Source: Impatiens glandulifera (lineage: Eukaryota; Streptophyta; Magnoliopsida; Ericales; Balsaminaceae). From it: DNA of 64,000 bases. Shown here piece by piece: positions 2,941 to 58,276 of this stretch; within the stretch, counting starts at the first letter, position 1; every line of letters starts with the position of its first letter. Location of the stretch: positions 25,395,348 through 25,459,347 of the forward strand of contig NC_061870.1 in the NCBI RefSeq assembly GCF_907164915.1. The letters are read 5' to 3'. Both the position numbers and the translations under genes were made by a program. A model generated the notes under the pieces. That model ran no database searches. It was not told the origin of the DNA and was given only the letters and a program-made list of their open reading frames with translations.

Positions 2941-2999
2941 GAAAATTGAGTGTTCATGGAATTTTTTATCAAGCAGGTGATGAGCTAGAAGTACAATAT

Positions 3000-3365
3000 T
3001 GTTGAGTTATGAAGCCTACACTTATAATAAACTCTACATTGTTAATTAAAGTTTATTGGGTTTTCTTTTTAGTTTTGGGCTTGGGCCTCACCAAAGTTAT
3101 TTAGGTTTATTACCTGAATGTTTACCCTATAAATATGTAATTATTAAGGGTTTACATTGTGGAGACAGAATTCTAGAGAGATAAAGTGTGAGGCAAAAAC
3201 TCTGTATTCTTTTTTCTTCTTCATAGTAAATCTGGTGGTGGCTGAAGTGAATGTAGCTCAATTTGAGTGAACCACTATAAATCTGTGTGTTCATGTGTTC
3301 TTCTTTCTTGTATTTTTACATATTATTTTCAAGCAGGTCGGGTTTGGGAGATATAAATCCTAACA
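3000..3365 (+). repeat. 5' LTR of younger copia, unit 1
   Basis: 366 bp, with TG...CA ends. It contains a plant-like TATA motif (CCTATAAATATG, near 3125). I count about 23 differences by eye from the 3' LTR of the same element, roughly 6 percent. Confidence 0.95.
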
Positions 3366-3408
3366 ACTTGTATCAGAGCAGCTAGGCTAGATCTGGGCAT
3401 TGGAAACA

Positions 3409-6400
3409 ATGGCAAGTGAGAACAGTATATTATATGGGATTGGAAGATTTGATGGGACATATTATGCCTTCTGGAGAATGCAGATTGAAGATTATCTCTA
3501 TGGAAAGAAGCTTCATGTTCCTTTGAGTGAGAAATCAGAGAAAATGGATGAAGCTGAATGGAAACTCCTTGATAGACAAGTTTTGGGAGTTGTCCGATTG
3601 ACGCTAGCCAAGACAGTTGCTTACAATGTAGCAAAGGAGAAGACCACCATGGGTCTGATGAAAGCTCTTTCTGATATGTATGAGAAACCATCTGCTAACA
3701 ACAATGAAAAGACTTAATGAAAAGACTCTTTACTTAAGAATGGTTGATGGTACTTCTGTCACTACTCATTTGAATGAATTAAATACAATTGTAAATCAAT
3801 TGCTATCTGTTGAGATTTGGGGATGAAGTTAGTGCCCTGATTTTGTTAGCATCTCTACCAAATAGTTGGGAACCTATGAGGACAGCAATTAGTAATTCAG
3901 TTGGAAATGCTAAACTGAAATTTGTTGAAGTTAGAGATCGTATTCTTGCTGAAGAGGTTCGTAAAATTGATTCTAGTGAAACATTCAAAGGTTCTGCTCT
4001 GAATGTGGAAAACAGGGGAAGAGGTAATGATAGAAATTTTAACCGAGGTAAGAACAAATCTATGTCGAGGAGCAAGAGGAGTCAGTCCAAGTCTGTGCGG
4101 ACATTTGAGTGCTGAAATTGTGGTAAACAGGGTCATTTGAAGAGAAACTGCAAAGCACCGAAGAAAAACGGTGATGATAAAAATGATGCAGCCAACGTTG
4201 TTACAAAATTTGTCACTGATGCGTTACTTCTGTCTATTGATAGCCCGATAGATTCATGGGTTTTGGACTCAGGAACGTCTTTCCACACCACTACTCACAA
4301 AGAATTAATGGAGAATTTTGTGGCTGGAAACTGTGGGAAAGTTTATCTCGCAGATGGTGAGCCACTGGATATTGTTGGCATTGGTGACATCAAATTAAAG
4401 ATGGAAAATGGTTCTGTTTGGAAGATTAATAAGGTGAGACACATTCCAGGTTTAATGTGCAATCTGATTTCTGTTACACAACTTGATGAAGAAGGTCACA
4501 ATTTTAGTTGTGGAAATGGTGCGTGGAAGGTGACTAAAGGAGCAATTGTTGTTGCTCGAGGTCATAAAACTGGAACGTTATACACGACTTCAACTTGTAG
4601 AGAAACAGTTGCTGCTGTAGTTGATGACTCGAACAACAATGAGTTGTGGCATTGCAGGTTGGGCCATATGAGTGAAAAATGGATAAAAATTCTTTTGAAG
4701 AATGGACAGATTCCAAAACTAAAGTCTGTTGAACATCAGTTATGTGAAAACTGCATTCTTGGAAAACAGAAACGGGTGAGTTTCTTAAAGATTGGGAAGG
4801 AGATCAAGAAAAAAAGGCTAGAGCTTGTACACACTAATGTATGGGGACCTGCACATGTTTCTTCTATTGGCGGATCACAATACTACGTGACGTTTATAGA
4901 TGATTCGACAAGAAAGGTATGGGTATATTTTATGAAGCACAAGTCTGAAGTATTTGCTATTTTCAAGAAATGGAAGGCTTTGGTTGAAAATGAAACAAAT
5001 CAGAAAGTTAAGTGCTTGAAATCCGACAACGGAGGTGAATATATCAATTCAGATTTCAAAGAGTATTGTGCTGTGAATGAGATCAGTATGGTGAAGATTG
5101 TTCCCCGAACGCCTCAAGAGAATGGAGTAGTTGAACGAATGAATCGAACATTGAACGAGCGTGCTAGAAGCATGAGATTGCATGCAAGGCTGCCTAAAAC
5201 TTTCTGGGCAGAAGCTATTAATACTGCTGCCTATTTGATAAACAAGGGACCCTCTGTTCCTCATGAATTCAGAATTACTGAAGAAGCCTGGAGCAATAAA
5301 AAGGTAAACCTTTCTTATTTGAAAGTGTTTGGTTGTTTATCATTGTTCATATTAATGAATGTGATAGGAGCAAACTTGATCCAAAGTCTAATAAATGTTT
5401 TTTCATTGGTTATGGTGATATCGAGTTTGGTTATCGTTTCTGGAATAATCAAAATCGGAAGATCATTCGTAGCAGAAATGTTATCTTCAATGAACAAGTT
5501 CTCTACAAAGATTGTGTTAGGAAGACATCAGATGGCGATTCCAAGTTGAAAGAGATTGGTACAGTCGATTTGAGAGAATTTTCAACTGAATATATACCGA
5601 CTGTCGAAAAAGACCAGTGTGTTGTTGAAGATGAAATCGTTGAGAACGTGGCCCCAAAGGAAAATCAACAAACACCGGTTATACAATTGAGAAGATCGTC
5701 AAGGAATTGAAAACCAGTTGAGAGGTGATCTCCATCTTTGAACTATATCTTGTTGACAGATAGAGGTGAACCTGAATGTTATGAGGAAGCAATACAATCT
5801 GATGAATCGATTAAGTGAGAGTCTTCTATAAAAGATGAGATGGACTCTTTGATATTGAATCAGACTTGGGAGCTCACTAAGCTTCCAAAGGGAAAGAAAG
5901 CACTTCACAACAAATGAATCTTCAGGATAAAAGAAGAACATGATAAAACCATAAGGTACAAGGCAAGGTTGGTTGTGAAATGATTTCAACAGAAAGAAGG
6001 TATTGACTACAATGAAATCTTCTCTCCAGTAGTTAAATTGATGACAATCAGAACTATTTTGAGTTTGGTTGTGAAAGAAGACCTTCATCTTCAACAAATA
6101 GATGTCAAAAATTCTTTTCTTCATGGTGATTTAGATGAAGACATTTATATGCGACAACCAGAAGGATTTGAAATCAAAGGAAAAGATGAGCTTGTGTGTA
6201 AGCTTCAGAAGAGTCTGTATGGTTTGAAACAGGCTCCAAGGCAATGGTACAAGAAGTTCGACAGCTTCATGAAAAGTAACAATTTTCTAAGGTGTGAAGC
6301 TGATCATTGTTGTTATATCAAGAGATTTGATAAAGCGTACATTATTCTGCTCCTCTACGTTGATGACATGTTGATTGCTGGAGCAAGGTTGTATGAGATT

Positions 6401-7312
6401 AACAAGCTCAAGAAAGAGTTGTCTGAAAAGTTTACAATGAAGGATTTGGGTGCTGCTAAACAAATCCTTAGGATGAGAATTTTCAGGGATGAAGAAGTTA
6501 TCAAGCTTTCAAAAGAAGAATGTGTGAAGAAAGTTCTTAGGAGGTTCAACTTGTATGATGCAAAACCAGTTACTACCCCCTTAGCTAGTCACTTGAAACT
6601 ATCTAAAGATCAGTCTCCTTCAATAGAGGAGGAGAAAAATTACATGGCCACTGTTCCGTATGCCTCTTCCATTGGTTGTATTATGTATGCGATGGTTTGC
6701 ATAAGACCAGACATAACACATGCAGTGGGAGTTGTTAGCAGATTCATGAGCAACCCGGGTAGACAACATTTGGAAGTAGTAAAGTGGATACTACGATACT
6801 TAAGAGGAAGTACGGGTCTCGTTTTGTGTTTTCGAAAGTCTAATATGTGTTTGGAAGGATATGTTGATGCTGACAATGGTGGTGATGTTGATAGTAGGAA
6901 GAGCACAACAAGGTACATTTATACTCTATGAGGTACTGCAATCAGTTGGGTTTCAAAATTATAGAAGATTGTTGCTCTTTCTAGTTGTGAGGCAGAGTAT
7001 GTTGCTGTGACAGAAGCTGCTAAGGAGATGATGTTATTACAACCCTTTTTGCGAGAATTGTGTCAAGACTGTGAGGGAAGTGTGTTGCGATGCGACAGTC
7101 AGAGTGTCATTCATTTGGCAAAGAATCCTATTTATCATGGCAGGATGAAGCATATACAGGTTCGTTATCATTTCATCCGATCATCTTTAGAAGATTGAGT
7201 ATTAGCTCTTGAGAAGATTCATGAGAGTGAGAATCCAGTTGATATGTTGACGAAAGCTGTGACAAATGAGAAACTGAAGTTGTGTGCAATTTCAATTGGT
7301 CTTCTTCGTTAA
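3409..7312 (+). pseudogene. Broken copia gag-pol polyprotein, unit 1
   Basis: Domains in order: gag (from MASENSI at 3409, ending in a stop at 3717 after a local 13-bp duplication), CCHC zinc knuckle with a TGA at 4113-4115 after the first Cys, aspartic protease (WVLDSGTS, near 4257), GAG-pre-integrase and integrase (LWHCRLGHMS, CENC, SDNGGEY, PQENGVVE), RT (SLYGLKQAPRQWY, LLLYVDDML near 6350) and RNase H (CEAEYVAV, DSQSVIHLAKN). The first integrase catalytic Asp is Asn here (HTNVWGP). A frameshift lies near 5340 and stops near 5709, 5817, 5917, 5981, 6931 and 7197. No working protein is expected. Confidence 0.95.
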
Positions 7313-7374
7313 GACACCGAATGGAAAGCCACTACCGATCGAGAGATGATGAAGTTAGTCTCCAAGTGGGAGAT

Positions 7375-7740
7375 TGTTGAGTTATGGAGCCTACACTTAT
7401 AATAAACTCTACATTGTTAATTAGAGTTTATTGGGTTTTCTTTTTAGTATTGGGTTTGGGCCTGACCAAAGTTATTTAGGTTTATTACCTGAATGTTTAC
7501 CCTATAAATATGTAATTATTAAGGTTTTACATTGTGGAGACAGAATTCTAGAGAGATAAAGTGTGAGGCAAAAACTCTATATTCCTTCTTCTTCTTCATA
7601 GTAAATTTGGTGGTGACTGAAGTGGATGTAGCTCAATTTGAGTAAACCACTATAAATTTGTGTGCTCTTGTGTTCTTCTTTCTTGTGTTTTTACAGATTG
7701 TTTTCAGGCAAGTCGGATTTGGGAGATACAAATCCTAACA
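7375..7740 (+). repeat. 3' LTR of younger copia, unit 1
   Basis: 366 bp, ending CCTAACA and followed by the target duplication AATAT. It differs from the 5' LTR at diagnostic sites (CTGACC against CTCACC, GGTGACTG against GGTGGCTG) that are also fixed in the 3' LTRs of units 3 and 4. Confidence 0.95.
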
Positions 7741-8100
7741 AATATGACTTCTTGGTAGACTATCAGATTCATGGGATACATTAAGAACGTCATTGTCTAA
7801 CTTAACTGCAAATAGTATTTGTACTACGGAGGTAGTGAAGAGTAGTGTCCTTATTGAAGAGATGAGAATAAAATCATATGGTTCTTCTTCGCATTTTGAT
7901 GTCCTACTTACTAAAAGAAAATGGATAATTAAGAGTAGAGATCGTAATATGAAAAGTATAGCAAAAATAGATCTGATAACAATGCTAATATTGAGTGATA
8001 TCATTGTGGCAAAAAGGAACATATTAAGAAATTTTGTCGAATGTTCCAAAGAGATAACAAAAATACAAATGATAAAGAAATGAAAATCGATGATAGTGAC

Positions 8101-14307: not shown

Positions 14308-14946
14308 TATATATAAACGAGTTAGGCTTCCATTTATTTCATATCAGAAATTAACTCTATCACTAGAAACTCTATCACTTGTGTCTCTTCTTAAAATTGT
14401 CTACTGGATTCTATTTCTTCTTTTTCATCACTTTTTCAGTTTTCATTTCTCTAGCTAGGTAAATATATCTCTAATCATTTCTTTTTAATTATATATATAT
14501 ATAATAGATCTAAATGCAATTTTTTATAGTTGATCATTTTACATAGAACAACGTGAGCTTGTATACGAAGGTCAAATTAATTCGCTATTTTTTATAATTT
14601 TTGACACGGTATAAACTTTTTTTTCACTCGACGTAGACATGTGATTAAAGATTTATCAAATTAATATCTTAAGCTTTTAAAAATGTTATAGAAAAATCAA
14701 TTTTTGTTGTTGATATGGTCAATAACTACTCTTGAAATTTTGAAAAAGTTTCAATGGTTTGAATTTTTTTTTACCACATATGATTTGAATTTTGAATATT
14801 TTCTTTGGGAAAGAGTTGATATATTATTCTATTTTTATAAATTTAGTTATAGAAGATACTTGATAACTCTAATTTAGTTGAAGAGTTTATTTTCTTATTT
14901 ATCGTGAATAAATGAGTATATAGTTTGATATGCATGAAATTTGCAG
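14308..14946 (+). promoter_or_regulatory. B1 promoter, leader exon and leader intron
   Basis: TATA box at 14308-14317 (TATATATAAA). A leader exon rich in TC ends TCTCTAGCTAG at 14458. The intron runs from GTAAAT at 14459 to TTTGCAG at 14946, directly before the ATG. The upstream 1.2 kb (from about 13790) is recognisably homologous to the DNA upstream of A (for example AACGACAATTAGACTAACGG against AACGACAATCAAGCTATCTG at 19676). Confidence 0.75.
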
Positions 14947-16456
14947 ATGGATATGAACGGAGGAAACTCTTTTAACAATGTTAATGGGTTACACGTGAAT
15001 TTAGACATGAACTTATCGTTAGATTCACTTGATCATCAACAAGTGCCTTTGAGAAATACCCGTAGAAGATATTCACCCGATATTAATGGAAATCTGCAAT
15101 CCCATCTTCTCCAACCAACCAATTATTTCATGCAAAACCCTAATCACGATCCCGTTGCCATCACCACCAGTGCTCGTTTAAGCACTATGACGTCACCTCT
15201 GATCCAAACCAATAGTCCGTCCATGATGTGGCCGCAGCCGCAGCAGCCAATTCATGATCAAAACCCCATCCCCGTCCACCATTTATCTCAAATTGATTAT
15301 AATGAGTTTTCCTATCATAATCAAAATCAACTCCCTCCTCACATGAGTGTTAATCAAAATCAACCCTCTCCCCACAGTGTTGATCAAGAACTGCAATCTT
15401 ACTTGGCTTGGCAGCAGGCACAAAATTATAATCAAAATCAATCACCTCCTCCCAGTTTTAATCTTGGCTACTTCAATCCCCAATACCTGGAATCCTACTT
15501 GGATTGGACCCGGGCACAGAATTATACTCTACAAATCATGAATAATTATATTGTTAGAGCTTCAACCGGCACTAATTCCAGGCCCATTGCTCCTGCTGCT
15601 GCCACTAGACTGTCGTCATCAAGGCGTAACAGCCGCAATAATAATAATAATAATAATGCTTCAAATGGAAGAAGGAGAAGGAACATGGTATGTATATATT
15701 CTTTTTTTACTCTTTAACGAATATCATCATTCAACAATTTCATTTTAATTCTTTAATCTTCATTAGGCTCGGGTGATTCAAGATTTATTTAACACACAAA
15801 ATGAGGTCAGTTTTTTTTATAAATAATAATAGCATAACCCTTGCTTAACATGTTCTTTTATGTATGGAAATTTAGCTTGTTAGCTCCATGTTTGAATCAA
15901 ATGCCCCAGCTGCAGCTGCTGCTACTGCTATTGTCTTCGGGGAGAATTTCATAACTCCTAATAATTTTTTTAATATGATGACTCATGAGGTAATAATAAC
16001 ATCGAGTTTAATTTCTGTTATCTAAATTTGAATTTTGTGTAATATAGACAACTAAAATAATTGTTGCATTCATGATAGGAAATACCCGTAAGTCCGATGC
16101 GAGAAGAAGTACTTGACCATGAAACCGGATTGAACGAGGGAGAGATTATGATGAGCGTGCATAGACTTAGGCATTGCCATTATTTGTTAAGTGAACATGA
16201 AGGAGAAGTATGCTCCATTTGTCAGGTAAGAGATCCTCTTATATATTAATTACCCATTTTATATATTAACTTTGATCACAATAATTTAATTATTAATAAT
16301 TGGTATAATTGCACTTCACAGCAAGAGTTTAACCAAGAAGAGGATGATATATGCAAATTGAGTTGCAATCATATTTATCATTTTGAATGCATTAAGACAT
16401 GGCTAATGCAAAAGAATTTTTGCCCAATTTGTAGAACACCTGCTATGTGTTTTTAA
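14947..16456 (+). CDS. RING-H2 E3 ubiquitin ligase B1 (391 aa)
   Basis: Five coding exons: 14947-15687, 15767-15805, 15876-15989, 16079-16225 and 16322-16456. All junctions are GT-AG and in phase 0. Residues 1-247 are low-complexity and rich in Asn, Gln, Pro and Ser, with a twice-repeated module (SYLAWQQAQNYNQ, SYLDWTRAQNYTL), an Asn run and a basic RRRR. The C-terminal RING reads C343-x2-C346-x15-C362-x-H364-x2-H367-x2-C370-x10-C381-x2-C384, with Trp374: a complete C3H2C3 set. Such proteins pass ubiquitin from an E2 to a substrate; the C-terminal RING after a disordered region resembles BIG BROTHER-like ligases, but that assignment is tentative. The start was chosen because the leader intron ends exactly at this ATG. 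Confidence 0.88.
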
Positions 16457-17007: not shown

Positions 17008-17860
17008 GTATTTTTATTTTGTAAATAACTTGAAAATATTTGACCCTTCTGATGTTTTTTTAGTATGGGAAGGTGTATCATTTTATTTTTACCATTCAAA
17101 TTTGAATTGGTGTTGTATTTTGTTTGATTCAGTATCTTGTTTAGTCGAATTAAATTTTCCATCACAGATTTTTATAATCCGAATAATATTATTAGCGATT
17201 GGTTTGTCGTTTGCTGCTCATACTTTTGATTATCTTGGTGATCATTTTTCAAGTCCGTGTTTATCCCCTTCTTAGCATCAAATGAGATTAATTAATTAGA
17301 TGTGGAATTGTTGTTCATTTTTTCCAATAAAGAGTCACTGAAACAAATCTTTCAGTCGAAGGTTCTTCTACATGTATTCTCCAATTATTTCTATGGGTTT
17401 CTCACATTTTTAACCATATGTGTAGATGATTAGTTATCACTTTGTAAAACATTTTTCGACGTTGTTTACCAGCCCTCGGATGTGGACAAATTTTATTGTC
17501 GCTCATAATATTTGGTAGAGATTCTTCTAACAACGTTTGATTGGTTTGTTCGACTTCCTCTACTTCATCCCTCATCATTACGGATCTTTGGAGTCACCTT
17601 TAAGAAATTACAAGATTATTTGAGTCATATCATTTAACATTTATATTTTTATTTAGTTGTTTTGATTATGTTAACATTATTTTATAATTTAATTTTCGAT
17701 ATGTAAACCCTTGTTTGAATTAATGAAAAATAATTTGTTTTTAAAAATAAATAAATAATAATGATAGAAGAGTAATTTGAAAATAATTAGTTAATTATTC
17801 AATTAAGCGAAAATCAAACAAGGGCGGAGTATTGTCACCAGTAAAAAGGGGGTAATTGCG
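16457..17860. other. AT-rich 3' flank of B1
   Basis: No supported gene. It holds a short TA run near 16977-17000. The frame at 17030-17275 is broken in unit 3 and differs mainly by amino-acid changes in unit 2, so it is not treated as coding. Counterparts: 31550-32920 and 51479-52900. Confidence 0.5.
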
Positions 17861-17869
17861 AGCATTTCC

Positions 17870-18192
17870 ACCGATTGGTTTAAAGACCAATCGATATTAT
17901 GAACATAACACTGATTAGTTTGTAAACCAATCGATATTATGTGTATAATACCGTTTGGTGTTTAAACAAATCAGTGTAATACCTTATATAACGCCAATTG
18001 GTTACAAAACCAATCAGTATACCCCCAATAAAACTCTGCGAAAAAAAGGAGCAACTCTTGGCGTATTTAGGAAGTAGTAGTACCGATTGGTTTGAAAACC
18101 AATCGGTAAAAGTCCACGTAATGTCGATTGGTTGGTTTACCAATTGGTGAATCCATAAGTTATATTACCGATTAACGTATACACCAATCGAT
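17870..18192. promoter_or_regulatory. Periodic CCAAT-box palindrome array, unit 1
   Basis: Seven 26-bp imperfect palindromes lie at 17870, 17910, 17950, 17993, 18082, 18124 and 18167. Each has the plan CCGATTGG...CCAATCGG with a 2-6 bp centre. The fifth is perfect (arms ACCGATTGGTTT, centre GA). Centre-to-centre spacing is 40, 40, 43, 89, 42 and 43 bp, so one degenerate slot remains (CCCCAATAAAACTC near 18023). ATTGG/CCAAT are the core of NF-Y sites, and ACCAATCAG/ACCAATCGG fit that consensus well. The array stops 5 bp before a TATA box. Regulatory function is inferred. Confidence 0.75.
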
Positions 18193-18197
18193 ATTTC

Positions 18198-18327
18198 CTA
18201 TAAAAACATCAAGAACAACCTGAGAGCTTCCCTTGCTCCTGATTCACTCTCCCTCTCCAACTCGTCGTTTTTCCATACCGATCGTCGCACACCCGTTTTG
18301 CCATTTCCTTCACTGTCGTCCGTCTAG
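18198..18327 (+). promoter_or_regulatory. TATA box and leader exon of an unidentified transcript, unit 1
   Basis: CTATAAAAAC (18198-18207) is followed by a CT-rich leader (CTCTCCCTCTCCAACTCGTC) with no ATG. It ends CGTCTAG before a donor GTAAGAAT at 18328. The form is typical of plant genes with a first intron in the 5' UTR. The coding part was not identified; the nearest exon-like sequence is at 19511. Confidence 0.6.
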
Positions 18328-18398
18328 GTAAGAATCTGATCAGTTAGAACTTCTTCATTTAGGTTTAGGTAAGATTCTGATTGGTTAGATCTTCTATA

Positions 18399-18728
18399 TT
18401 TAGGTTTAGGTTTTCAAGAATCATTTTGTTGCCTCCGATCTAAAACTCTTGTTGTTGTCGTTCCCATCCAGATGATCTTTCTTCCTTTTTTGCATTTTGA
18501 TTGAGTTATATGATTTGTTAGATGAATGTTGAAGAGAGTACATCCGATTGATTGTGCTATATTTTATGTTTAGGTTTAGGTTTTCAAGAATCATTTTGTT
18601 TCCTCCGATCTAAAACTCTTGTTGTTGTCGTTCCCATTCAGATGATCTATTTAGGTTTAGGTTTTCAAGAATCATTTTGTTGCCTCCGATCTAAAACTCT
18701 TGTTGTTGTCGTTCCCATTCAGATGATC
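18399..18728 (+). repeat. Three copies of an 80-bp leader-intron module, unit 1
   Basis: A module beginning TTAGGTTTAGGTTTTCAAG and containing CCTCCGATCTAAAACTC and TTGTTGTTGTCGTTCCCA occurs at 18399, 18569 and 18651. The first spacing also includes the downstream stretch up to TGCTATATTTTATG. Unit 3 has the same three copies; unit 2 has one. Confidence 0.9.
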
Positions 18729-19510
18729 TTTCTTCCTTTCTTGCATTTTGATTAAGTTATATGATTTGTTAGATGAATGTTGAAGAGAGTACATCCGATT
18801 GATTGTGCTATATTTTATGTTTTTGTTGAATGTAATGAAAGAGGAAGCAACTTCAGTTCGTTTCTTAGTACTTTATTTTGGGAGAAATAGTTGCTGGTAC
18901 ACAAAAGTTATGAATTCATTCATTCAATTTTGTTTATTTAAGATTTCTACAACAATTAATTTTGATTCTTGAGTTGAGAATGAGTCAATTTTGTATATTA
19001 TTAGTGTAGTAGAATGAATGTTGAATGAATGTGGTATGTAATGCTTTAATGTTCTAACTTATGATGTTGAATTAATGTTTTGGTGTTGGTATGCAATAAA
19101 AGTTTGAATAATGTGTTTATCCAAGTAATAGTGTTGATAATAAATGACATCATAGTATAATTCCGCCTTAGTTGCTTTTAAAAAAATGAAGGAGGGAATG
19201 AGATCATGCATAATCATATAAATAGAGTTAATAAAGTGAATGCATAAAGAAAAGGGTGAGTGAGTGGAAGGTGGTGGGGATTGTGCATATAATTGAGATT
19301 GGTGTTTTGACAAAATTATTAATTTGTTGATTGATTAGCATGTTATGACTATCACATTTCTTCCATTAAATGTTACAATCGTCTTAATTTTACAAGTTTT
19401 TTCTATTAAATGTGATCTCTCCAACTTGATTTATTGAAACTTGTGTGTATTTGCTTCCATTAAATTGAAGGAGAGCAAATACTAAAAGATTAGCATCCAT
19501 TGTTTTATAG
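18729..19510. other. Intron-like stretch, unit 1
   Basis: T-rich sequence between the donor at 18328 and a possible acceptor TTTTATAG ending at 19510. No coding frame in it is supported. It is nearly identical in unit 2 (33540-34308) and unit 3 (53767-54546). Confidence 0.4.
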
Positions 19511-19612
19511 GCTATCTTCTTTGTCGCAAGCATCATCTTCCTGCTTCACCTCTCGCGGCACTCCGACGATCTTGATTATGTCATGTTTGCTTTCTCTAAG
19601 AGAAAGTATTAG
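19511..19612 (+). other. Candidate terminal exon (34 codons with stop), unit 1
   Basis: After TTTTATAG, a GC-richer stretch reads AIFFVASIIFLLHLSRHSDD and continues to a TAG at 19610-19612. It is hydrophobic first, then polar (ending KRKY). It is identical in unit 2 (34309-34410) and has one silent change in unit 3 (54547-54648), while flanking DNA has indels. It could be the last exon of the transcript that starts at 18198, or a captured exon fragment. The product is not recognised. Confidence 0.3.
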
Positions 19613-20942: not shown

Positions 20943-22090
20943 ATGGATATGAACAGAACGATCTCTTCTAACAATGGTAATGGGTTACTTGAGAATTTGG
21001 AATTGAATTACTTAGGATCGATAGAGTCATTTGATTATCATCAGGTGCCTTTGAGCTGGATTAACGGGATACCTGCAGTGGATGCAGGACATCACCGTGA
21101 TCAAGACCATATATCCATCATGATGCTGAGTAATACCCGTAGAAGATTATCACCCATAAATGGAAACCCTTGTCATGATCCCCTCGCCATCGCCCGTGCT
21201 CTCAACCAGAGCTTCGCTCGTTTAAGCACTATGCCGTCACCTCCGATCCAAACCAGTAGTCCGGCCATGATGTGGCCGCAGCAGCAGCATCAGCTAATTC
21301 AAGAGCAAAACCCCATCGGCGCCGAGAGGAATTTCTTGGCCATGGGTGGCGCCATCCCCGTCAACCATTTCTCTCCAATTGATTATCATGAGTTTTTCTA
21401 TGAACTCTATCCTAATCAAATTAAACCCACTCCCAACACACAATTATAATCAAAATCAATCCCCTCCCACTGTTAATCTTGGTTACAGTAATATCCTAAC
21501 CAAGATCAACAACAACAATCCTACTTGGATTGGCAGCAGGAACAGAATTATAATCAACAACTGCAATCCCTCATCATGATCCCCTCGACTTTACCCGTGC
21601 TCCGAATCAGAGCCTCGCTCGTTTAAGAACTATGACGTTACCGCCGATCCAAACCAGTAGTCTGCCGCAACCAATTCAAGATAAAAACCAATAGTCATCG
21701 AGGGTTCTAGAGTACCATGAGTTTCCTTCCATTTTTAATTCGGTCATTTATGTATACTTATTAGAACAAGCTTCTACTTACTTCTGATAATTAAACAAAA
21801 CTGTAATTTTTTGCTTTTTTCATATTTTTGTTTTTTTCATTACTGAACTAAATTTTATTTATATGCGTTTTTTTTTTTAATTGAAGAAACTCATTGTTTG
21901 GTATGCACCATTTTCGGGAAAAATAAATTTATTTTTCTTTTTATTATATTGACAAGTTTGTTTTATAGGAATGTTGTTGCAAATGGGAAGAAAATGATTT
22001 ATCATCTCCTCTTTCACAATTTTTTTTTATCATTGAGAATATTGGAAATGAATGTCTCCTTCTTGCAATAGGAGAAATGTCAATTTTATG
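20943..22090 (+). pseudogene. Decayed RING-finger paralogue A2
   Basis: This copy keeps the longest A frame: 168 codons from the ATG at 20943 to a stop at 21449. A private deletion of about 50 bp (after CCCATAAATGGAAA) removed the region that is frameshifted in A1, A3 and A4. Downstream modules (SYLDWQQEQNYNQ) are out of frame. RING-exon relics after 21870 lack zinc ligands (CTIF instead of CxxC). A non-RING product cannot be excluded, but decay is the simpler reading. Confidence 0.7.
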
Positions 22091-31549: not shown

Positions 31550-32920
31550 TTATTATTGTTTAAATAATTCATTATAAACTATATTTTCAATATGTTTAAA
31601 CCCATTTTACATATCTTGTTTCCATTATTTTAATTTAATACGATGCTTAGTTCAACTTTTTTTTTAATGTTTTTACTTTATATTATTATAGTAATTGACT
31701 AATTTTAAATAACACAAAATATACAATGCTAATATACAAAAATTGTGACGATTTGACCATTATAATATGTTTGAAGTCATTTAAAGTGTCTTAATACAAA
31801 GAATGGTTAATCTAAACGTATTCATCAAATTTATACCCACCTAACATCGTTATTTTTCATTTTAAATTTTATTAAATTTTTAAATATTATTTTTTAGTGT
31901 GAAATTAAAACACTTTGCTATTCAAATGGTGGGAACATTTTAAAATACAATAGGTCTATTTTGCTCTAGGCCATGTTTGATTTTAAATTAATTTAAATTA
32001 ATTTTTACCATCAAATCATAAAAAAAAACAAATTATTTTCCAATTAATATATATATTTATATATAGTATTTTTTTTTTTTGTAAATAACTTGAAAATATT
32101 TGGCCCTTCTGATGATTTTTTAGTATGGGAAGGTGTATCGTTTTATTTTTACCATTCAAATTTGAGTTGGTGTTGTATTTTGTTTGATTCAGTATCTTGT
32201 TTAGTCGAATTAAATTTTTCATCACGAATTTTTATAATCCGAATAATATTTTTAGCGATTGGTTTGTCGTTTGCTGCTCATACTTTTGATTATCTTGGTG
32301 ATCATTTTTCAAGTCCGTGTTTATCCCCTTCTTAGCATCAAATGAGATTAATTAACTAGATGTGGAATTGTTGTTCATTTTTTCCAATAAAGAGTCACTA
32401 AAACAGATTTTTCAGTTGAAGGTTCCTATACATGTATTCTCCAATTATTTCTATGGGTTTCTCACATTTTTAACCATATGTGTAGATGATTAATTATCAC
32501 TTTGTAAAACATTTTTCGACGTTGTTTACCAGCCCTCGGTTGTGGACAAATTTCATTGTCGCTCAGAATATTTGGTAGAGATTCTTCAGACAAAGTTTTA
32601 TTGGTTTGTTCGACTTCCTCTACTTCATCCCTCATCATTACGGATTTTTGGAGTCACCTTTAAGAAATTACAAGATTATTTGAGTCATATCATTTAACAT
32701 TTATATTTTTATTTAGTTGTTTTGATTATGTTAACATTATTTTATAATTTAATTTTCCATATGTAAACCCTTGTTTGAATTAATGAAAAATAATTTGTTT
32801 TTAAAAATAAATAAATAATAATAATAGAAGAGTAATTTGAAAATAATTAGTTAATTATTCAATTAAGCAAAAATCAAATAAGGGCGGAGTATTGTCACTA
32901 GTAAAAAAGGGGTAATTGCG
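31550..32920. other. AT-rich 3' flank of B2
   Basis: Counterpart of 16457-17860. No supported gene. Confidence 0.5.
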
Positions 32921-32929
32921 AGCATTTCC

Positions 32930-33252
32930 ACCGATTGGTTTAAAGACCAATCGATATTATGAACATAACACTGATTGGTTTGTAAACCAATCGATATTAT
33001 GTTTATAATACCGTTTGGTGTTTAAACAAATCAGTGTAATACCTTATATAACACCAATTGGTTACAAAACCAATCGGTATAACCCCAATAAAACTCCGCA
33101 AAAAAAAGGAGCCAACTCGTGGTGTATTTAGGAAGTAGTAGTACCGATTGGTTTGAAAACCAATCGGTAAAAGTCCACGTAATGTCGATTGGTTGGTTTA
33201 CCAATTGGTGAATCCATAAGTTATATTACCGATTAACGTATACACCATTCGA
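32930..33252. promoter_or_regulatory. Periodic CCAAT-box palindrome array, unit 2
   Basis: Same seven palindromes and spacing as in unit 1. Palindrome 2 is better preserved here (CTGATTGGTT...AACCAATCG, against GATTAG in units 1 and 3). The last palindrome has CCATT instead of CCAAT. Confidence 0.72.
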
Positions 33253-33258
33253 TATTTC

Positions 33259-33388
33259 CTATAAAAACATCAAGAACAACATGAGAGCTTCCCTTTCTCT
33301 CGATTCACTCTCCCTCTCCAACTCGTCGTTTTGCCATACCGATCGTCGCACACCCGTTTTGCCATTTCCTTCACTGTCGTCCGTCTAG
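33259..33388 (+). promoter_or_regulatory. TATA box and leader exon, unit 2
   Basis: CTATAAAAAC at 33259-33268; leader up to CGTCTAG; donor GTAAGAAT at 33389. Confidence 0.58.
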
Positions 33389-33539
33389 GTAAGAATCAGA
33401 TCGGTTAGAACTTCTTCATTTAGGTTTAGGTAAGATTCTGATTGGTTAGATCTTCTCTATTTAGGTTTAGGTTTTCAAGAATCATTTTGTTGCCTCCGAT
33501 CTAAAACTCTTGTTGTTGTCGTTCTCATTCAGATGATCT

Positions 33540-34308
33540 TTCTCCTTTCTTGCATTTTGATTAAGTTATATGATTTGTTAGATGAATGTTGAAGAGAGTA
33601 CATCCGATTGATTGTGCTATATTTTATGTTTTTGTTGAATGTAATGAAAGAGGAAGCAACTTCAGTTCGTTTCTTAGTACTTTATTTTGGGAGAAATAGT
33701 TGCTGGTACACAAAAGTTATGAATTCATTCATTCAATTTTGTTTATTTAAGATTTCTACAACAATTAATTTTGATTCTTGAGTTGAGAATGAGTCAATTT
33801 TGTGTATTATTAGTGTAGTAGAATGAATGTGGTATGGAATGCTTTAATGTTCTAACTTATGATGTTGAATTAATGTTTTGGTGTTGGTATGCAATAAAAG
33901 TTTGAATAATGTGTTTATCCAAGTAATAGTGTTGATAATAAATGACATCATAGTATAATTCCGCCTTAGTTGCTTTTAAAAAAATGAAGGAGGGAATGAG
34001 ATCATGCATAATCATATAAATAGAGTTAATAAAGTGAATGCATAAAGAAAAGGGTGAGTGAGTGGAAGGTGGTGGGGATTGTGCATATAATTGAGATTGG
34101 TGTTTTGACAAAATTATTAATTTGATGATTGATTAGCATGTTATGACTATCACATTTCTTCCATTAAATGTTACAATCGTCTTAATTTTACAAGTTGTTT
34201 CTATTAAATGTGATCTCTCCAACTTGATTAACTGAAACTTGTGTGTATTTGCTTCCATTAAATTGAAGGAGAGCAAATACTAAAAGATTAGCATCCATTG
34301 TTTTATAG
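33540..34308. other. Intron-like stretch, unit 2
   Basis: Counterpart of 18729-19510. A single leader-intron module precedes it at about 33461-33538. No supported coding frame. Confidence 0.4.
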
Positions 34309-34410
34309 GCTATCTTCTTTGTCGCAAGCATCATCTTCCTGCTTCACCTCTCGCGGCACTCCGACGATCTTGATTATGTCATGTTTGCTTTCTCTAAGAG
34401 AAAGTATTAG
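34309..34410 (+). other. Candidate terminal exon (34 codons with stop), unit 2
   Basis: Identical in sequence to 19511-19612, preceded by TTTTATAG and ending in TAG. See the unit 1 entry for the reading and doubts. Confidence 0.3.
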
Positions 34411-37980: not shown

Positions 37981-38035
37981 ATTGAGTGTTCATGGAATTT
38001 TTTATCAAGCAGATGATGAGCTAGAAGTACAATAT

Positions 38036-38401
38036 TGTTGAGTTATGAAGCCTACACTTATAATAAACTCTACATTGTTAATTAGAGTTTATTGGGTTTT
38101 CTTTTTAGTTTTGGGCTTGGGCCTCACCAAAGTTATTTAGGTTTATTACCTGAATGTTTACCCTATAAATATGTAATTATTAAGGGTTTACATTGTAGAG
38201 ACAGAATTCTAGAGAGATAAAGTGTGAGGCAAAAACTCTGTATTCTTTTTTCTTCTTCATAGTAAATCTGGTGGTGGCTGAAGTGAATGTAGCTCCATTT
38301 GAGTGAACCACTATAAATCTGTGTGTTCTTGTGTTCTTCTTTCTTGTGTTTTTACAGATTATTTTCAAGCAGGTCGGGTTTGGGAGATATAAATCCTAAC
38401 A
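38036..38401 (+). repeat. 5' LTR of younger copia, unit 3
   Basis: 366 bp. It shares 5'-LTR-specific states (CTCACC, CTGTATTC, GGTGGCTG) with units 1 and 4. Confidence 0.95.
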
Positions 38402-38444
38402 ACTTGTATCAGAGCAGCTAGGCTAGATCTGGGCATTGGAAACA

Positions 38445-41400
38445 ATGGCAAGTGAGAACAGTATATGATATGGGTTTGGAAGATTTGATGGGACATATTA
38501 TGCCTTCTGGAGAATGCAGATTGAAGATTATCTCTATGGAAAGAAGCTTCATGTTCCTTTGACTGAGAAATCAGAGAAGATGGATGAAGCTGAATGGAAA
38601 CTCCTTGATAGACAAGTTTTGGGAATTGTCCGATTGACGCTAGCCAAGACAGTTGCTCACAATGTAGCAAAGGAGAAGACCACCATGGGTCTGATGAAAG
38701 CTCTTTCTGATATGTATGAGAAACCATCTGCTAACAATAATGAAAAGACTTAATGAAAAGACTCTTTACTTAAGAATGGTTGATGGTACTTCTGTCACTA
38801 CTCATTTGAATGAATTAAATACAATTGTAAATCAATTGCTATCTGTTGAGATTTGGGGATGAAGTTAGTGCCCTGATTTTGTTAGCATCTCTACCAAATA
38901 GTTGGGAACCTATGAGGGCAGCAATTAGTAATTCAGTTGGAAATGCTAAACTGAAATTTGTTGAAGTTAGAGATCGTATTCTTGCTGAAGAGGTTCGTAA
39001 AATCGATTCTAGTGAAACATTCAAAGGTTCTGTTCTGAATGTGGAAAACAAGGGAAGAAGTAATGATAGAAATTTTAACCGAGGTAAGAACAAATCTATG
39101 TCGAGGAGCAAGAGGAGTCAATCCAAGTCTGTGCGGACATTTGAGTGCTGAAATTGTGGTAAACAGGGTCATTTGAAGAGAAACTGCAAAGCACCGAAGA
39201 AAAACGGTGATGATAAAAATGATGCAGCCAACGTTGTTACAAAATCTGTCACTGATGCGTTACTTCTGTCTGTTGATAGCCCGATAGATTCATGGGTTTT
39301 AGACTCAGGAACGTCTTTCCACACCACTACTCACAAAGAATTAATGGAGAATTTTGTGGCTGAAAATTGTGGGAAAGTTTATCTCGCAGATGGTGAGCCA
39401 CTGGATATTGTTGGCATTGGTGACATCAAATTAAAGATGGAAAATGGTTCTGTTTAGAAGATTAATAAGGTGAGACACATTCCAGGTTTAATGTGCAATC
39501 TGATTTTTGTTACACAACTTGATGAAGAATGTCACAATTTTAGTTGTGGAAATGGTGCGTGGAAGGTGACTAAAGGAGCAATTGTTGTTGCTCGAGGTCA
39601 TAAAACTGGAACGTTATACACGACTTCAACTTGTAGAGAAACAGTTGCTGCTGTAGTTGATGACTCGAACAACAATGAGTTGTGGCATTGCAGGTTGGGC
39701 CATATGAGTGAAAAATGGATGAAAATTCTTTTGAAGAATGGACAGATTCCAGAACTAAAGTCTGTTGAACATCAGTTATGTGAAAACTGCATTCTTGGAA
39801 AACAGAAACGAGTGAGTTTCTTAAAGATTGGGAAGGAGCTCAAGAAAGAAAGGATAGAGTTGGTACACACTGATGTATGGGGACCTACACATGTTTCTTC
39901 TATTGGCGGATCACAATACTACGTGACATTTATAGATGATTCGACAAGAAAGGTATGGGTATATTTTATGAAGCACAAGTCTGAAGTATTTGCTATTTTC
40001 AAGAAATGGAAGGCTTTGGTTGAAAATGAAACAAATCAGAAAGTTAAGTGCTTGAAATCCGACAACGGAGGTGGATATATCAATTCAGATTTCAAAGAGT
40101 ATTGTGATGTGAATGAGATCAGTATGGTGAAGATTGTTCCCCGAACGCCTCAAGAGAATGGAGTAGCTGAACGAATGAATCGAACATTGAACGAGCGTGC
40201 TAGAAGCATGAGATTGCATGCAGGGCTGCCTAAAACTTTCTGGGCAGAAGCTATTAATACTGCTGCCTATTTGATAAACAAGGGACCCTCTGTTCCTCTT
40301 GAATTCAGAATTACTGAAGAAGCCTGGAGCAATAAAAAGGTAAACCTTTCTTATTTGAAAGTGTTTGGTTGTTTATCATTGTTCATATTAATGAATGTGA
40401 TAGGAGCAAACTTGATCCAAAGTCTAATAAATGTTTTTTCATTGGTTATGGTGATATCGAGTTTGGTTATCGTTTCTGGAATAATCAAAATTGGAAGATC
40501 ATTCGTAGCAGAAATGTTATCTTCAATGAACAAGTTCTCTACAAAGATTGTGTTAGGAAGACATCAGATGGCGATTCCAAGTTGAAAGAGATTGGTACAG
40601 TCGATTTGAGAGAATTTTCAACTGAATATATACCGACTGTCGAAAAAGACCAGTGTGTTGTTGAAGATGAAATCGTTGAGAACGTGGCCCCAAAGGTAAA
40701 TCAGCAAACACCGGTTATACAGTTGAGAAGATCGTCAAGGAATCGAAAACCAGTTGAGAGGTGATCTCCATCTTTGAACTATATCTTGTTGACAGATAGA
40801 GGTGAACCTGAATGTTATGAGGAAGCAATACAATCTGATGAATCGATTAAGTGAGAGTCTTCTATAAAAAATGAGATGGACTCTTTGATATTGAATCAAA
40901 CTTGGGAGCTCACTAAGCTTCCAAAAGGAAAGAAAGCACTTCACAACAAATGGATCTTCGGGATAAAATAAGAACATGATAAAACCATAAGGTACAAGGC
41001 AAGGTTGGTTGTGAAATGATTTCAACAGAAAGAATGTATTGACTACAATGAAATCTTCTCTCCAGTAGTTAAATTGATGACAATCAGAACTATTTTGAGT
41101 TTGGTTGTGAAAGAAGACCTTCATCTTCAACAAATAGATGTCAAAAATTCTTTTCTTCATGGTGATTTAGATGAAGACATTTATATGCGACAACCAGAAG
41201 GATTTGAAATCAAAGGAAAAGATGAGCTTGTGTGTAAGCTTCAGAAGAGTCTGTATGGTTTGAAATAGGCTCCAAGGCAATGGTACAAGAAGTTCGACAG
41301 CTTCATGAAAAGTAACAATTTTCTAAGGTGTGAAGCTGATCATTGTTGTTATATCAAGAGATTTGATAAAGAGTACATTATTCTGCTCCTCTACGTTGAT

Positions 41401-42348
41401 GACATGTTGATTGCTGGAGCAAGGTTGTATGAGATTAACAAGCTCAAGAAAGAGTTGTCTGAAAAGTTTGCAATGAAGGATTTGGGTGCTGCTAAACAAA
41501 TCCTTAGGATGAGAATTTTCAGGGATGAAGAAGTTATCAAGCTTTCACAAGAAGAATATGTGAAGAAAGTTCTTAGGAGGTTCAACTTGTATGATGCAAA
41601 ACCAGTTACTACCCCCTTAGCTAGTCACTTCAAACTATCTAAAGATCAGTCTCCTTCAACAGAGGAGGAGAAAAATTACATGGCCACTATTCTGTATGCC
41701 TCTTCCATTGGTTGTATTATGTATGCGATGGTTTGCATAAGACCAGACATAACACATGCAGTGGGAGTTGTTAGCAGATTCATGAGCAACCCGGGTAGAC
41801 AACATTAGGAAGTAGTAAAGTGGATACTACGATACTTAAGAGGAAGTACGGGTCTCGTTTTGTGTTTTCGAAAGTCTAATATGTGTTTGGAAGGATATGT
41901 TGATGCTGACAATGGTGGTGATGTTGATAGTAGGAAGAGCAAAACAAGGTACATTTATACTCTATGAGGTACTGCAATCAGTTGAGTTTCAAAATTACAG
42001 AAGATTGTTGCTCTTTCTAGTTGTGAGGCAGAGTATGTTGCTGTGACAGAAGCTGCTAAGGAGATGATGTTGTTACAACCCTTTTTGCGAGAATTTTATC
42101 AAGACTGCGAGGGAAGTGTGTTGCGATGCGACAGTCAGAGTGTCATTCATTTGGCAAAGAATCCTGTTTATCATGGCAGGATGAAGCATATACAGGTTCG
42201 TTATCATTTCATCCGATCATCTTTAGAAGATGGAGTATTAGCTCTTGAGAAGATTCATGGGAGTGAGAATCCAGTTGATATGTTGACGAAAGCTGTGACA
42301 AATGAGAAACTGAAGTTGTGTGCAATTTCAATTGGTCTTCTTCGTTAA
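38445..42348 (+). pseudogene. Broken copia gag-pol polyprotein, unit 3
   Basis: Same domains as unit 1, with more stops. TGA is at codon 8 of gag (shared with unit 4) and in the zinc knuckle (39149-39151, shared by all). Private TAG stops lie at 39455-39457, 41266-41268 (in GLKQAP of RT) and 41806-41808. The first integrase Asp is kept (HTDVWGP), but the second catalytic motif reads DNGGGY rather than DNGGEY. Confidence 0.95.
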
Positions 42349-42410
42349 GACACCGAATGGAAAGCCACTACCGATCGAGAGATGATGAAGTTAGTCTCCA
42401 AGTGGGAGAT

Positions 42411-42775
42411 TGTTGAGTTATGGAGCCTACACTTATAATAAACTCTACATTGTTAATTAGAGTTTATTGGGTTTTCTTTTTAGTATTGGGCTTGGGCCTG
42501 ACCAAAGTTATTTAGGTTTATTACCTGAATGTTTACCCTATAAATATGTAATTATTAAGGGTTTACATTGTGGAGACAGAATTCTAGAGAGATAAAGTGT
42601 GAGGCAAAAACTCTATATTCCTTCTTCTTTTCATAGTAAATCTGGTGGTGACTGAAGTGGATGTAGCTCAATTTGAGTAAACCACTATAAATTTGTGTGT
42701 TCTTGTGTTCTTCTTTCTTGTGTTTTTACAGATTGTTTTCAAGCAGGTCGGATTTGGGAGATACAAATCCTAACA
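42411..42775 (+). repeat. 3' LTR of younger copia, unit 3
   Basis: 365 bp, following polypurine tract AAGTGGGAGAT and ending CCTAACA. Confidence 0.95.
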
Positions 42776-43135
42776 AATATGACTTATTGGTAGACTATTA
42801 GATTCATGGGATACATTAAGAACGTCATTGTCTAACTTAACTGCAAATAGTATTTGTACTACGGAGGTGGTGAAGAGTAGTGTCCTTATTAAAGAGATGA
42901 GAATAAAATCATATGGTTCTTCTTCGCATTTTGATGTCCTACTTACTAAAAGAAAATGGATAATTAAGAGTAGAGATCGTAATATGAAAAGTATAGCAAA
43001 AATAGATCTGATAACAATGCTAATATTGAGTGATATCATTGTGGCAAAAAGGAACATATTAAGAAATTTTGTCGAATGTTCCAAAGAGATAACAAAAATA
43101 CAAATGATAAAGAAATGAAAATCGATGATAGTGAC

Positions 43136-51478: not shown

Positions 51479-52900
51479 TTATTATTTTTTAAATAATTCA
51501 TTATAAACTACATTTTCAATATGTTTAATCCCATTTTACATATCTTGTTTCTATTATTTTAATTTAATACGATGCTTAGTTCAACTTTTTTTTTTATGTT
51601 TTTACTTTATATTATTATAGTAATTGACTAATTTTAAATAACACAAAATATACAATGCTAATATACAAAAATTGTGACGATTTGACCATTGTAATATGTT
51701 TGAAGTCATTTAAAGTGTCTTAATACAAAGAATGGTTAATCTAAATAATACAAAGAATGGTTAATCTAAACGTATTTATAAAATTTATACCCACCTAACA
51801 TCGTTATTTTTCATTTTAAATTTTATTAATTTTTTAAATATTATTTTTTAGTGTGAAATTAAAACACTTTGCTATACAAATGGTGGGAACATTTTTAAAT
51901 ACAATAGGTCTATTTTGCTCTAGGCCATGTTTGATTTTAAATTAATTTAAATTAATTTTTACTATCAAATCATAAAAAAAACAAATTATTTTCCAATTAA
52001 TATATATATATATATATATTTATATATAGTATTTTTCTTTTGTAAATAACTTGAAAATATTTGACCCTTCTGATGTTTTTTAGTATGGGAAGGTGTATCA
52101 TTTTATTTTTTCCATTCAAATTTGAGTTGGTGTTGTATTTTGTTTGATTCAGTATCTTGTTTAGTCGAATTAAATTTTCCATCACAGATTTTTATAATCC
52201 GAATAATATTATTAGCGATTGGTTTGTCGTTTGCTGCTCATACTTTTGATTATCTTGGTGATCATTTTTCAAGTCCGTGTTTATCCCCTTCTTAGCATCA
52301 AATGAGATTAATTAATTAGATGTGGAATTGTTGTTCATTTTTTCCAATAAAGAGTCACTGAAACAAATCTTTCAGTCGAAGGTTCTTCTACATGTATTCT
52401 CCAATTATTTCTATGGGTTTCTCACATTTTTAACCATATGTGTAGATGATTAGTTATCACTTTGTAAAACATTTTTCGACGTTATTTACCAGCCCTCGGA
52501 TGTGGACAAATTTTATTGTCGCTCAGAATATTTGGCTCAGAATATTTGGTAGAGATTCTTCTAACAACGTTTGATTGGTTTGTTCGACTTCCTCTACTTC
52601 ATCCCTCATCATTACGGATCTTTGGAGTCACCTTTAAGAAATTACAAGATTATTTGAGTCATATCATTTAACATTTATATTTTTATTTAATTGTTTTGAT
52701 TATGTTAACATTATTTTATAATTTAATTTTCGATATGTAAACCCTTGTTTGAATTAATGAAAAATAATTTGTTTTTAAAAATAAATAAATAATAATAATA
52801 GAAGAGTAATTTGAAAATAATTAGTTAATTATTCAATTAAGCGAAAATCAAACAAGGGCGGAGTATTGTCACCAATAAAAAGGGGGTAATTGCGAGCATT
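51479..52900. other. AT-rich 3' flank of B3
   Basis: Counterpart of 16457-17860. A private 14-bp tandem duplication (GCTCAGAATATTTG) lies near 52530. No supported gene. Confidence 0.5.
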
Positions 52901-52903
52901 TCC

Positions 52904-53227
52904 ACCGATTGGTTTAAAGACCAATCGATATTATGAACATAACACTGATTAGTTTGTAAACCAATCGATATTATGTTTATAATACCGTTTGGTGTTTAAA
53001 CAAATCAGTGTAATACCTTATATAACGCCAATTGGTTACAAAACCAATCGGTATACCCCCAATAAAACTCCGCGATAAAAAGGAGCCAACTCTTGGCGTA
53101 TTTAGGAAGTAGTAGTACCGATTGGTTTGAAAACCAATCGGTAAAAGTCCACGTAATGTCGATTGGTTGGTTTACCAATTGGTGAATCCATAAGTTATAT
53201 TACCGATTAACGTATACACCAATCGAT
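52904..53227. promoter_or_regulatory. Periodic CCAAT-box palindrome array, unit 3
   Basis: Same seven palindromes and near-42-bp spacing as unit 1, with the perfect palindrome (arms ACCGATTGGTTT) at about 53117-53142. It ends 5 bp before the TATA box. Confidence 0.75.
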
Positions 53228-53232
53228 ATTTC

Positions 53233-53362
53233 CTATAAAAACATCAAGAACAACCTGAGAGCTTCCCTTGCTCCTGATTCACTCTCCCTCTCCAACTCGT
53301 CGTTTTTCCATACCGATCGTCGCACACCCGTTTTGCCATTTCCTTCACTGTCGTCCGTCTAG
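53233..53362 (+). promoter_or_regulatory. TATA box and leader exon, unit 3
   Basis: CTATAAAAAC at 53233-53242; leader up to CGTCTAG; donor GTAAGAAT at 53363. Confidence 0.58.
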
Positions 53363-53434
53363 GTAAGAATCTGATCGGTTAGAACTTCTTCATTTAGGTT
53401 TAGGTAAGATTCTGATTGGTTAGATCTTCTATAT

Positions 53435-53766
53435 TTAGGTTTAGGTTTTCAAGAATCATTTTGTTGCCTCCGATCTAAAACTCTTGTTGTTGTCGTTCCC
53501 ATTCAGATGATCTTTCTTCCTTTCTTGCATTTTGATTGAGTTATATGATTTGTTAGATGAATGTTGAAGAGAGTACATCCGATTGATTGTGCTATATTTT
53601 ATGTTTAGGTTTAGGTTTTCAAGAATCATTTTGTTGCCTCCGATCTAAAACTCTTGTTGTTGTCGTTCCCATTCAGATGATATATTTAGGTTTAGGTTTT
53701 CAAGAATCATTTTGTTGCCTCCGATCTAAAACTCTTGTTGTTGTCGTTCCCATTCAGATGATCTTT
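53435..53766 (+). repeat. Three copies of the 80-bp leader-intron module, unit 3
   Basis: Module starts (TTAGGTTTAGG) at 53435, 53605 and 53686, the same arrangement as in unit 1. Confidence 0.9.
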
Positions 53767-54546: not shown

Positions 54547-54648
54547 GCGATCTTCTTTGTCGCAAGCATCATCTTCCTGCTTCACCTCTCGCGGCACTCC
54601 GACGATCTTGATTATGTCATGTTTGCTTTCTCTAAGAGAAAGTATTAG
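54547..54648 (+). other. Candidate terminal exon (34 codons with stop), unit 3
   Basis: As in units 1 and 2, except that GCT is GCG in the first codon, a silent change. Confidence 0.3.
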
Positions 54649-58220: not shown

Positions 58221-58276
58221 AATTGAGTGTTCATGGAATTTTTTATCAAGCAGATGATGAGCTAGAAGTACAATAT

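What the first reader, a model, noticed from the sequence alone, without database searches (positions are those of the whole stretch)
17870..18207. Helically spaced array of CCAAT-box palindromes abutting a TATA box
Seven 26-bp inverted repeats of ATTGG/CCAAT lie at centre spacings of 40, 40, 43, 89, 42 and 43 bp, close to four DNA turns, with one eroded slot. The array ends 5 bp before CTATAAAAAC and a leader exon with a canonical donor. CCAAT is the NF-Y core, but a periodic palindromic array of 12-14 half-sites is not a promoter layout I know. It could place dimeric NF-Y-like complexes on one face of the helix, form hairpins or cruciforms, or be a minisatellite that landed by a promoter. 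All three complete units keep it.
Basis: partly seen in the sequence, partly recalled or inferred. Interest (0 to 1): 0.75.

Follow-up and report, generated by a model that had tools for sequence, protein, structure and literature searches.

The report
CACTA transposon end, not host promoter
The striking row of CCAAT palindromes is one end of a plant jumping gene (a CACTA transposon) that was copied along with a tandemly repeated gene block; it is a handsome but ordinary example of a known kind.

Summary
Seven imperfect 26-bp ATTGG/CCAAT palindromes lie at 17870-18192 and in both other complete units. A search of the window's own assembly (taken as Impatiens glandulifera) scored 40 of 228 candidates: 40 dispersed or tandem places. 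Of 20 dispersed copies fetched, 12 begin with at least 12 of 14 letters of CACTAGTAAAAAAG; window copy B reads CACTAGTAAAAAAGGGG at 32896. Palindromes recur near the other end, mostly 44 bp apart, before TTTTACTAGTG. Two of seven paired ends show 3-bp target-site duplications. Broken Transpos_assoc, tnp2 and DUF4218 frames follow the array. So it is the 5' subterminal repeat region and promoter of a CACTA (En/Spm) family; the window holds a truncated 5' fragment, 17836-19573. Arms do not covary overall, phasing on one helix face fails at 10.4-10.6 bp per turn, and the 'eroded slot' is a shared spacer with an E2F-like core in some copies. Likely role, by analogy with TNPA of En/Spm: dimer sites for the element's own DNA-binding protein (inferred). 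Low interest.

The parts
17836..19573 (+). 5' fragment of a CACTA element, copy A (copy B 32896-34371, copy C 52870-54609)
   Evidence: Homology of dispersed copies to the window begins near 17836 and stops at or just before 19573 in the 8 of 20 copies that reach there; same junction in the three copies
17836..17849 (+). 5' terminal inverted repeat, decayed in copy A (CACCAGTAAAAAGG); intact CACTAGTAAAAAAG at 32896 in copy B
   Evidence: family ends
17870..17895 (+). subterminal palindrome 1
17910..17935 (+). subterminal palindrome 2
17950..17975 (+). subterminal palindrome 3 (no intact CCAAT)
17993..18018 (+). subterminal palindrome 4
18082..18107 (+). subterminal palindrome 5, the most perfect (12 of 13 pairs)
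18123..18148 (+). subterminal palindrome 6
18167..18192 (+). subterminal palindrome 7 (left half broken)
18198..18207 (+). TATA-like CTATAAAAAC of the element's promoter
   Evidence: similar box after the last scored palindrome in most of the dispersed copies listed; no transcript evidence
18228..18327 (+). presumed non-coding leader exon, donor GT at 18328; start not known
   Evidence: homologous in dispersed copies; by eye
14947..16456 (+). intact RING-type gene of the unit (RHG1A-like), with a TATA-like box of its own at 14308-14321 and donor at 14459; context only
   Evidence: box and donor by eye
20943..21446 (+). truncated RING gene exon (pseudogene), with a TATA-like box of its own near 20460 and donor at 20589; context only
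   Evidence: box and donor by eye

Best explanation
The array is the 5' subterminal repeat region of a CACTA (En/Spm-type) DNA transposon family. It lies between the CACTAGTAAAAAAG terminal repeat and the TATA-like box and leader of the element's transposase gene. Shown: position at CACTA ends, related palindromes at the other end, tnp2 frames downstream, dispersal, and 3-bp duplications in two copies. Inferred: the palindromes are dimer sites (half-site near ACCAATCGGT) for an element-encoded TNPA/TNP1-like protein that brings the two ends together for excision and, lying over the promoter, tunes the element's own transcription, as reported for TNPA of En/Spm (I put this mechanism at about 0.75). 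The window copies are 5' fragments without the rest of the element, multiplied with a RING-gene unit, so they probably no longer move by themselves.
For: Dispersed: 40 places scored of 228 candidates; strict core at 29 places, backward control 0. 5' ends: at least 12 of 14 letters of CACTAGTAAAAAAG in 12 of 20 fetched loci, and copy B in the window. 3' ends with palindromes, mostly 44 bp apart, and ACTAGTG. Duplications CAG/CAG for L016 with L029 and TAC/TAC for L013. Transpos_assoc 4e-16, Transposase_21 1e-28 and DUF4218 1.2e-31 in L020, Transposase_21 1.1e-12 in L016. Palindromes 70-72% alike within an array against 35-37% for linkers in the window and 70% against 37-39% in 13 dispersed arrays. 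Half-sites kept while the centre changes between 5' and 3' arrays.
Against: Five of seven paired ends show no matching duplication (L011, L015, L022, L026, L027). Eight of 20 loci score below 12 of 14 for the 5' repeat at the expected place, though L026 has one further out. No TNPA-like gene was found, and the part of the C8 element in L029 has only one frame of 70 aa or more (88 aa) on the element's strand. Between copies half-sites are only slightly better kept than linkers (0.75 against 0.70) and, among the three window copies, not significantly so (4 of 182 columns against 19 of 398, p = 0.17).
Confidence: 0.95

Rival explanations
1. The palindromes are NF-Y sites of a promoter: host NF-Y binds the CCAAT half-sites and drives transcription from the TATA-like box, of the transposon or of a captured host gene.
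For: The half-site has C at +1 and a purine at +2 of CCAAT, as reported as preferred for a plant NF-Y (PMC6843132, passages). In mouse, about 40% of Sp2-specific promoters have two CCAAT motifs 30-50 nt apart (PMC4368557, passages), so such spacing is not foreign to promoters. The array adjoins a TATA-like box.
Against: The same palindromes stand at the 3' end of the elements. Conservation reaches beyond the pentamer: T at position 26 in 98% of the 123 5' units, though 68% of the 22 3' units (units chosen by score). The two CCAATs of a palindrome are 13 bp apart, which I expect to be too close for two NF-Y trimers (recalled, not tested). Phasing fails at 10.4-10.6 bp per turn.
Confidence: 0.1
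2. The array is the promoter of the tandem RING genes, recruited from the transposon.
For: It lies upstream of the truncated RING exon at 20943 and in the same orientation, in all three complete units.
Against: By eye, the truncated exon and the intact gene each have a TATA-like box and a leader donor of their own; the array's leader has no match upstream of the intact gene. The two RING boxes do not align with each other, and no transcript data were available, so it is not excluded.
Confidence: 0.04
3. The palindromes are kept because they form hairpins or cruciforms.
For: Palindromes 1, 4 and 5 of copy A fold better than all of 200 shuffles (z -4.9, -5.2, -7.1); palindrome 6 weakly (z -2.0). 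Soybean Tgmt* subterminal repeats are also described as stem-loops (PMC2613891, passages).
Against: Palindromes 2, 3 and 7 do not fold better than shuffles. Overall the arms do not covary (5' p = 0.10, 3' p = 0.97); one pair next to the centre does in 5' units (z 4.0) but the reverse in 3' units (z -3.6).
Confidence: 0.04
4. A minisatellite that happened to land beside a promoter.
For: Tandem Repeats Finder calls a 40-bp array over the first units; units 1 and 2 share most of their linker.
Against: Linkers are near chance identity while palindromes are alike; the array keeps its place relative to CACTA ends and its spacing in many copies.
Confidence: 0.02

Closest known systems
Soybean CACTA element Tgmt* (PMC2613891; passages read)
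   Same: CACTA terminal repeats, 3-bp duplication, tnp2 transposase, and subterminal motifs in inverted pairs able to form stem-loops (2 at the left, 12 at the right border)
   Different: Its motif is 17 bp (TTGGCAG plus AATCTTACAG), not the GATTGGT/ACCAATC palindrome; its repeats lie mostly at the right border, here seven lie at the 5' end
Maize En/Spm (as described in PMC2613891, passages)
   Same: Subterminal repeats at both ends, tnp2-type transposase; TNPA binds the repeats, is needed for transposition, and regulates the element's activity
   Different: En-1 motif is 12 bp; here a 26-bp palindrome with a TATA-like box after it, and no TNPA-like gene found
Soybean TgmR* (PMC4219821, passages) and lettuce LsC1 (PMC8195511, passages)
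   Same: CACTA ends with direct and inverted subterminal repeats; LsC1 is a large family, mostly without the transposase genes
   Different: Different subterminal motifs as far as the passages show for TgmR*; the LsC1 motif was not seen

Membership tests
CACTA (En/Spm) DNA transposons | CACTA terminal inverted repeats at both ends | tested here: met
   5' repeat at 12 or more of 14 in 12 of 20 loci and in window copy B; 3' ...ACTAGTG in L022, L026, L027, L029 and TATTAGTG in L013. The window copies have no 3' end
CACTA (En/Spm) DNA transposons | 3-bp target-site duplication | tested here: met
   2 of 7 paired ends: L016/L029 CAG/CAG, L013 TAC/TAC; not seen in L011, L015, L022, L026, L027. Not testable for the truncated window copies
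CACTA (En/Spm) DNA transposons | Subterminal repeats, direct and inverted, at both ends | tested here: met
   5' arrays; 3' arrays
CACTA (En/Spm) DNA transposons | tnp2/TNPD-type transposase inside the element | tested here: met
   PF02992, PF13963, PF13960 matches in L020 and PF02992 in L016, in frames with stops between them; absent from the window fragment
CACTA (En/Spm) DNA transposons | TNPA/TNP1-like protein that binds the subterminal repeats | tested here: inconclusive
   No long frame in the element part of L029; no profile search for TNPA/TNP1 families was made; binding not testable
CACTA (En/Spm) DNA transposons | Ability to move | not testable with these tools
   No polymorphism or expression data
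NF-Y-driven multi-CCAAT promoter | Several intact CCAAT boxes upstream of a TATA box | tested here: met
   10 of 14 in-register half-sites intact per copy, TATA-like box 5-6 bp after the last palindrome
   Resultant 0.03-0.46 at 10.4-10.6 bp per turn; 0.73-0.75 only at 10.2, uncorrected
NF-Y-driven multi-CCAAT promoter | NF-Y occupancy and a transcript starting downstream | not testable with these tools
   No ChIP, CAGE or RNA-seq available

The most novel reading that the evidence does not exclude
The 5' end of this CACTA family is read twice: by its own DNA-binding protein for transposition, and by host cell-cycle factors, NF-Y at the CCAAT half-sites and E2F at the TTTTGGCGC-type spacer, so that the transposase is made in S phase. 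The family would then have spread ready-made cell-cycle promoters through the genome, six of them in this RING cluster.
Probability: 0.1. Interest if true: 0.5.

Novelty: new member of a known kind. Interest (0 to 1): 0.2.

Why it matters
It removes a tempting false lead: a periodic CCAAT array abutting a TATA box can be a transposon's subterminal repeats plus its own promoter. It also gives a clear motif (near ACCGATTGGTTTnnAAACCAATCGGT) for annotating a CACTA family in Impatiens and for asking what protein reads it.

Tried and rejected
NF-Y array on one helix face: phases do not agree at 10.4-10.6 bp per turn. Cruciform: no overall arm covariation, three of seven palindromes of copy A fold strongly. 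Minisatellite: linkers near chance. Promoter of the RING genes: those have TATA-like boxes and leaders of their own by eye, and the array's leader has no match elsewhere in the window than in the three arrays. A retrotransposon LTR: a thought of mine before the ends were seen, dropped when copies began with CACTA. Motif strings in papers: 89 papers, 30 listed, titles show no related element, none opened. Searches for multi-CCAAT, helical or palindromic layouts: none, 3 listed, not opened, 2 listed, passages of one read. Impatiens with CACTA: 6 papers, one on an Impatiens genome, none opened. I. glandulifera genome papers: 13 found, 10 listed, none opened. I therefore do not claim that the family is unpublished beyond these searches.

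Full report
What is there. The window is a tandem array of a unit of about 15 kb (20 kb where a Copia element sits inside); matching stretches over 300 bp are 90-98% alike between copies. Each complete unit holds seven imperfect palindromes built on ATTGG...CCAAT, at 17870-18192, 32930-33253 and 52904-53227. Spacings are 40, 40, 43, 89 or 90, 41, 44. CTATAAAAAC follows after 5 bp, then a presumed leader with donor AG|GTAAGA. Chance does not give this: 21 window hits score 17-24 of 24, while five random sequences of window length gave ten hits of 16 or more, best 18.

Source. The RING protein frame at 14941 is 89% identical to an Impatiens glandulifera protein (P0001). The contig length printed for the second hit, also of I. 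glandulifera (50,848,190), equals that of contig C7 of the window's assembly. I therefore take the source as I. glandulifera (inference).

The array is dispersed. A search of the own assembly with 17860-18210 found 228 first-look candidates and scored 40. They are 40 distinct places: six tandem units on C9 within about 92 kb, and 34 others on C1, C3-C8 and small contigs. The strict core CGATTGGTTTnnAAACCAATCG occurs at 29 places, six of them in the C9 cluster, against none for the backward control.

It is a transposon end. I fetched 20 of the 34 other places with about 4 kb on each side. Homology to the window begins near 17836 in copies with an intact left end. In the 8 of 20 copies that reach the right edge it stops at or up to 40 bp before 19573, after which most of these copies go on alike while the window differs. 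Left ends carry at least 12 of 14 letters of CACTAGTAAAAAAG in 12 of 20 loci. The other eight score 7-11 at the expected place: some are cut or rearranged, and L026 has its repeat further out. Window copy B reads CACTAGTAAAAAAGGGG at 32896; copies A and C are altered. Related palindromes form second arrays, mostly at 44-bp spacing, before ...ACTAGTG or TATTAGTG. One element, C8:24969149-24976459 (7,311 bp, positions worked out from L016 and L029), is flanked by CAG on both sides. L013 (2,535 bp) is flanked by TAC on both sides. The other five loci with a 3' array (L011, L015, L022, L026, L027) gave no matching duplication. Downstream of the 5' array, in its orientation, separate frames match Transpos_assoc (4e-16), Transposase_21/tnp2 (1e-28) and DUF4218 (1.2e-31) in L020, and Transposase_21 (1.1e-12) in L016. 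These are the marks of a CACTA element.

What the window copies are. BLAST of the C8 element against the window matches only its first 1.35 kb, and nothing of the L029 part. The letters around the junction at 19573 are the same in the three copies, so truncation most likely came before the unit was amplified. The truncated RING exon (20943) and the intact RING gene (14947) each have, by eye, a TATA-like box and a leader donor of their own. The two boxes do not align with each other, and there are no transcript data. So nothing shows that the array drives the RING genes, but it is not excluded.

How it works. Within a window array, palindromes are 70-72% alike and the neighbouring 12-bp linkers 35-37%. 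In the 13 of 20 dispersed arrays with six or more located units it is 70% against 37-39%. Profiles of 123 5' units (20 dispersed loci and window copy A) and 22 3' units (six loci) share GATTGGT...ACCAATC around a changed centre. The units were chosen by a score of at least 16 of 24, which favours the consensus, and two of the 3' units (L015, 30 bp apart) may not be a true array. Arms do not covary overall (p = 0.10 and 0.97). One pair beside the centre does in 5' units (z 4.0) and the reverse in 3' units (z -3.6). This fits half-sites kept each for itself, as for a protein that binds as a dimer. In En/Spm the element's TNPA recognises the subterminal repeats, is needed for transposition and regulates the element (PMC2613891, passages). 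That this family does the same is inference; I found no TNPA-like gene and made no profile search for one. Between copies the half-sites (75%) are only slightly better kept than linkers (70%) and about as well as the spacer (74%). Among the window copies they are not significantly protected (p = 0.17). Both fit mostly inactive copies but do not by themselves show selection.

The CCAAT question. The half-site suits a plant NF-Y preference (C at +1, purine at +2; PMC6843132, passages), and paired CCAATs 30-50 nt apart are common at mouse Sp2-specific promoters (PMC4368557, passages), so host NF-Y may bind. Against it as the reason for the array: related palindromes stand at the 3' end, and conservation reaches beyond the pentamer. 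The spacer between palindromes 4 and 5 has an E2F-like core in 9 of 21 arrays by a script pattern (consensus recalled; window copy A is not among them), and L018 shows one just past its last scored palindrome. The copies are related, so this is not independent evidence. Transposons that carry E2F sites are known in Brassicaceae (PMC12595863, passage).

Verdict. Observation confirmed with corrections; the promoter reading holds at most for the transposon itself; a CACTA family that I did not find described in the searches named, of a known kind.

Noticed in passing
2998-7741; 38034-42776; 58275-63018: A Copia-type retrotransposon with 369-bp LTRs (93.8-95.7% alike within a copy) sits at the same place in the long units and is missing from the short unit at 23241; insertion before unit duplication is likely.
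   Followed up: partly
C9:25378773-25470304 of the assembly; window 17836-55207: Six tandem units, each with the CACTA fragment; the units read in the window pair an intact RHG1A-like RING gene with a truncated RING exon.
   Followed up: partly
18019-18081 and the same spacer in L009-L014, L020, L026, L027: E2F-like cores (such as TTTTGGCGCG) in the spacer between palindromes 4 and 5 of 9 of 21 arrays examined; consensus recalled, binding untested.
   Followed up: partly
18569-18729 and 53600-53762: An 81-bp tandem duplication in the first intron of copies A and C that Tandem Repeats Finder did not report for copy B.
   Followed up: no
L018; C8:12667918-12697481: Six partial arrays (query 1-228) spaced about 5.7 kb apart: another tandem amplification holding a fragment of this CACTA end.
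   Followed up: no
whole assembly: tnp2 (PF02992) gave 2,420 first-look candidates; the 150 scored were all over the cut-off, many in open frames near 885 aa: CACTA-type transposases look abundant in this genome.
   Followed up: no
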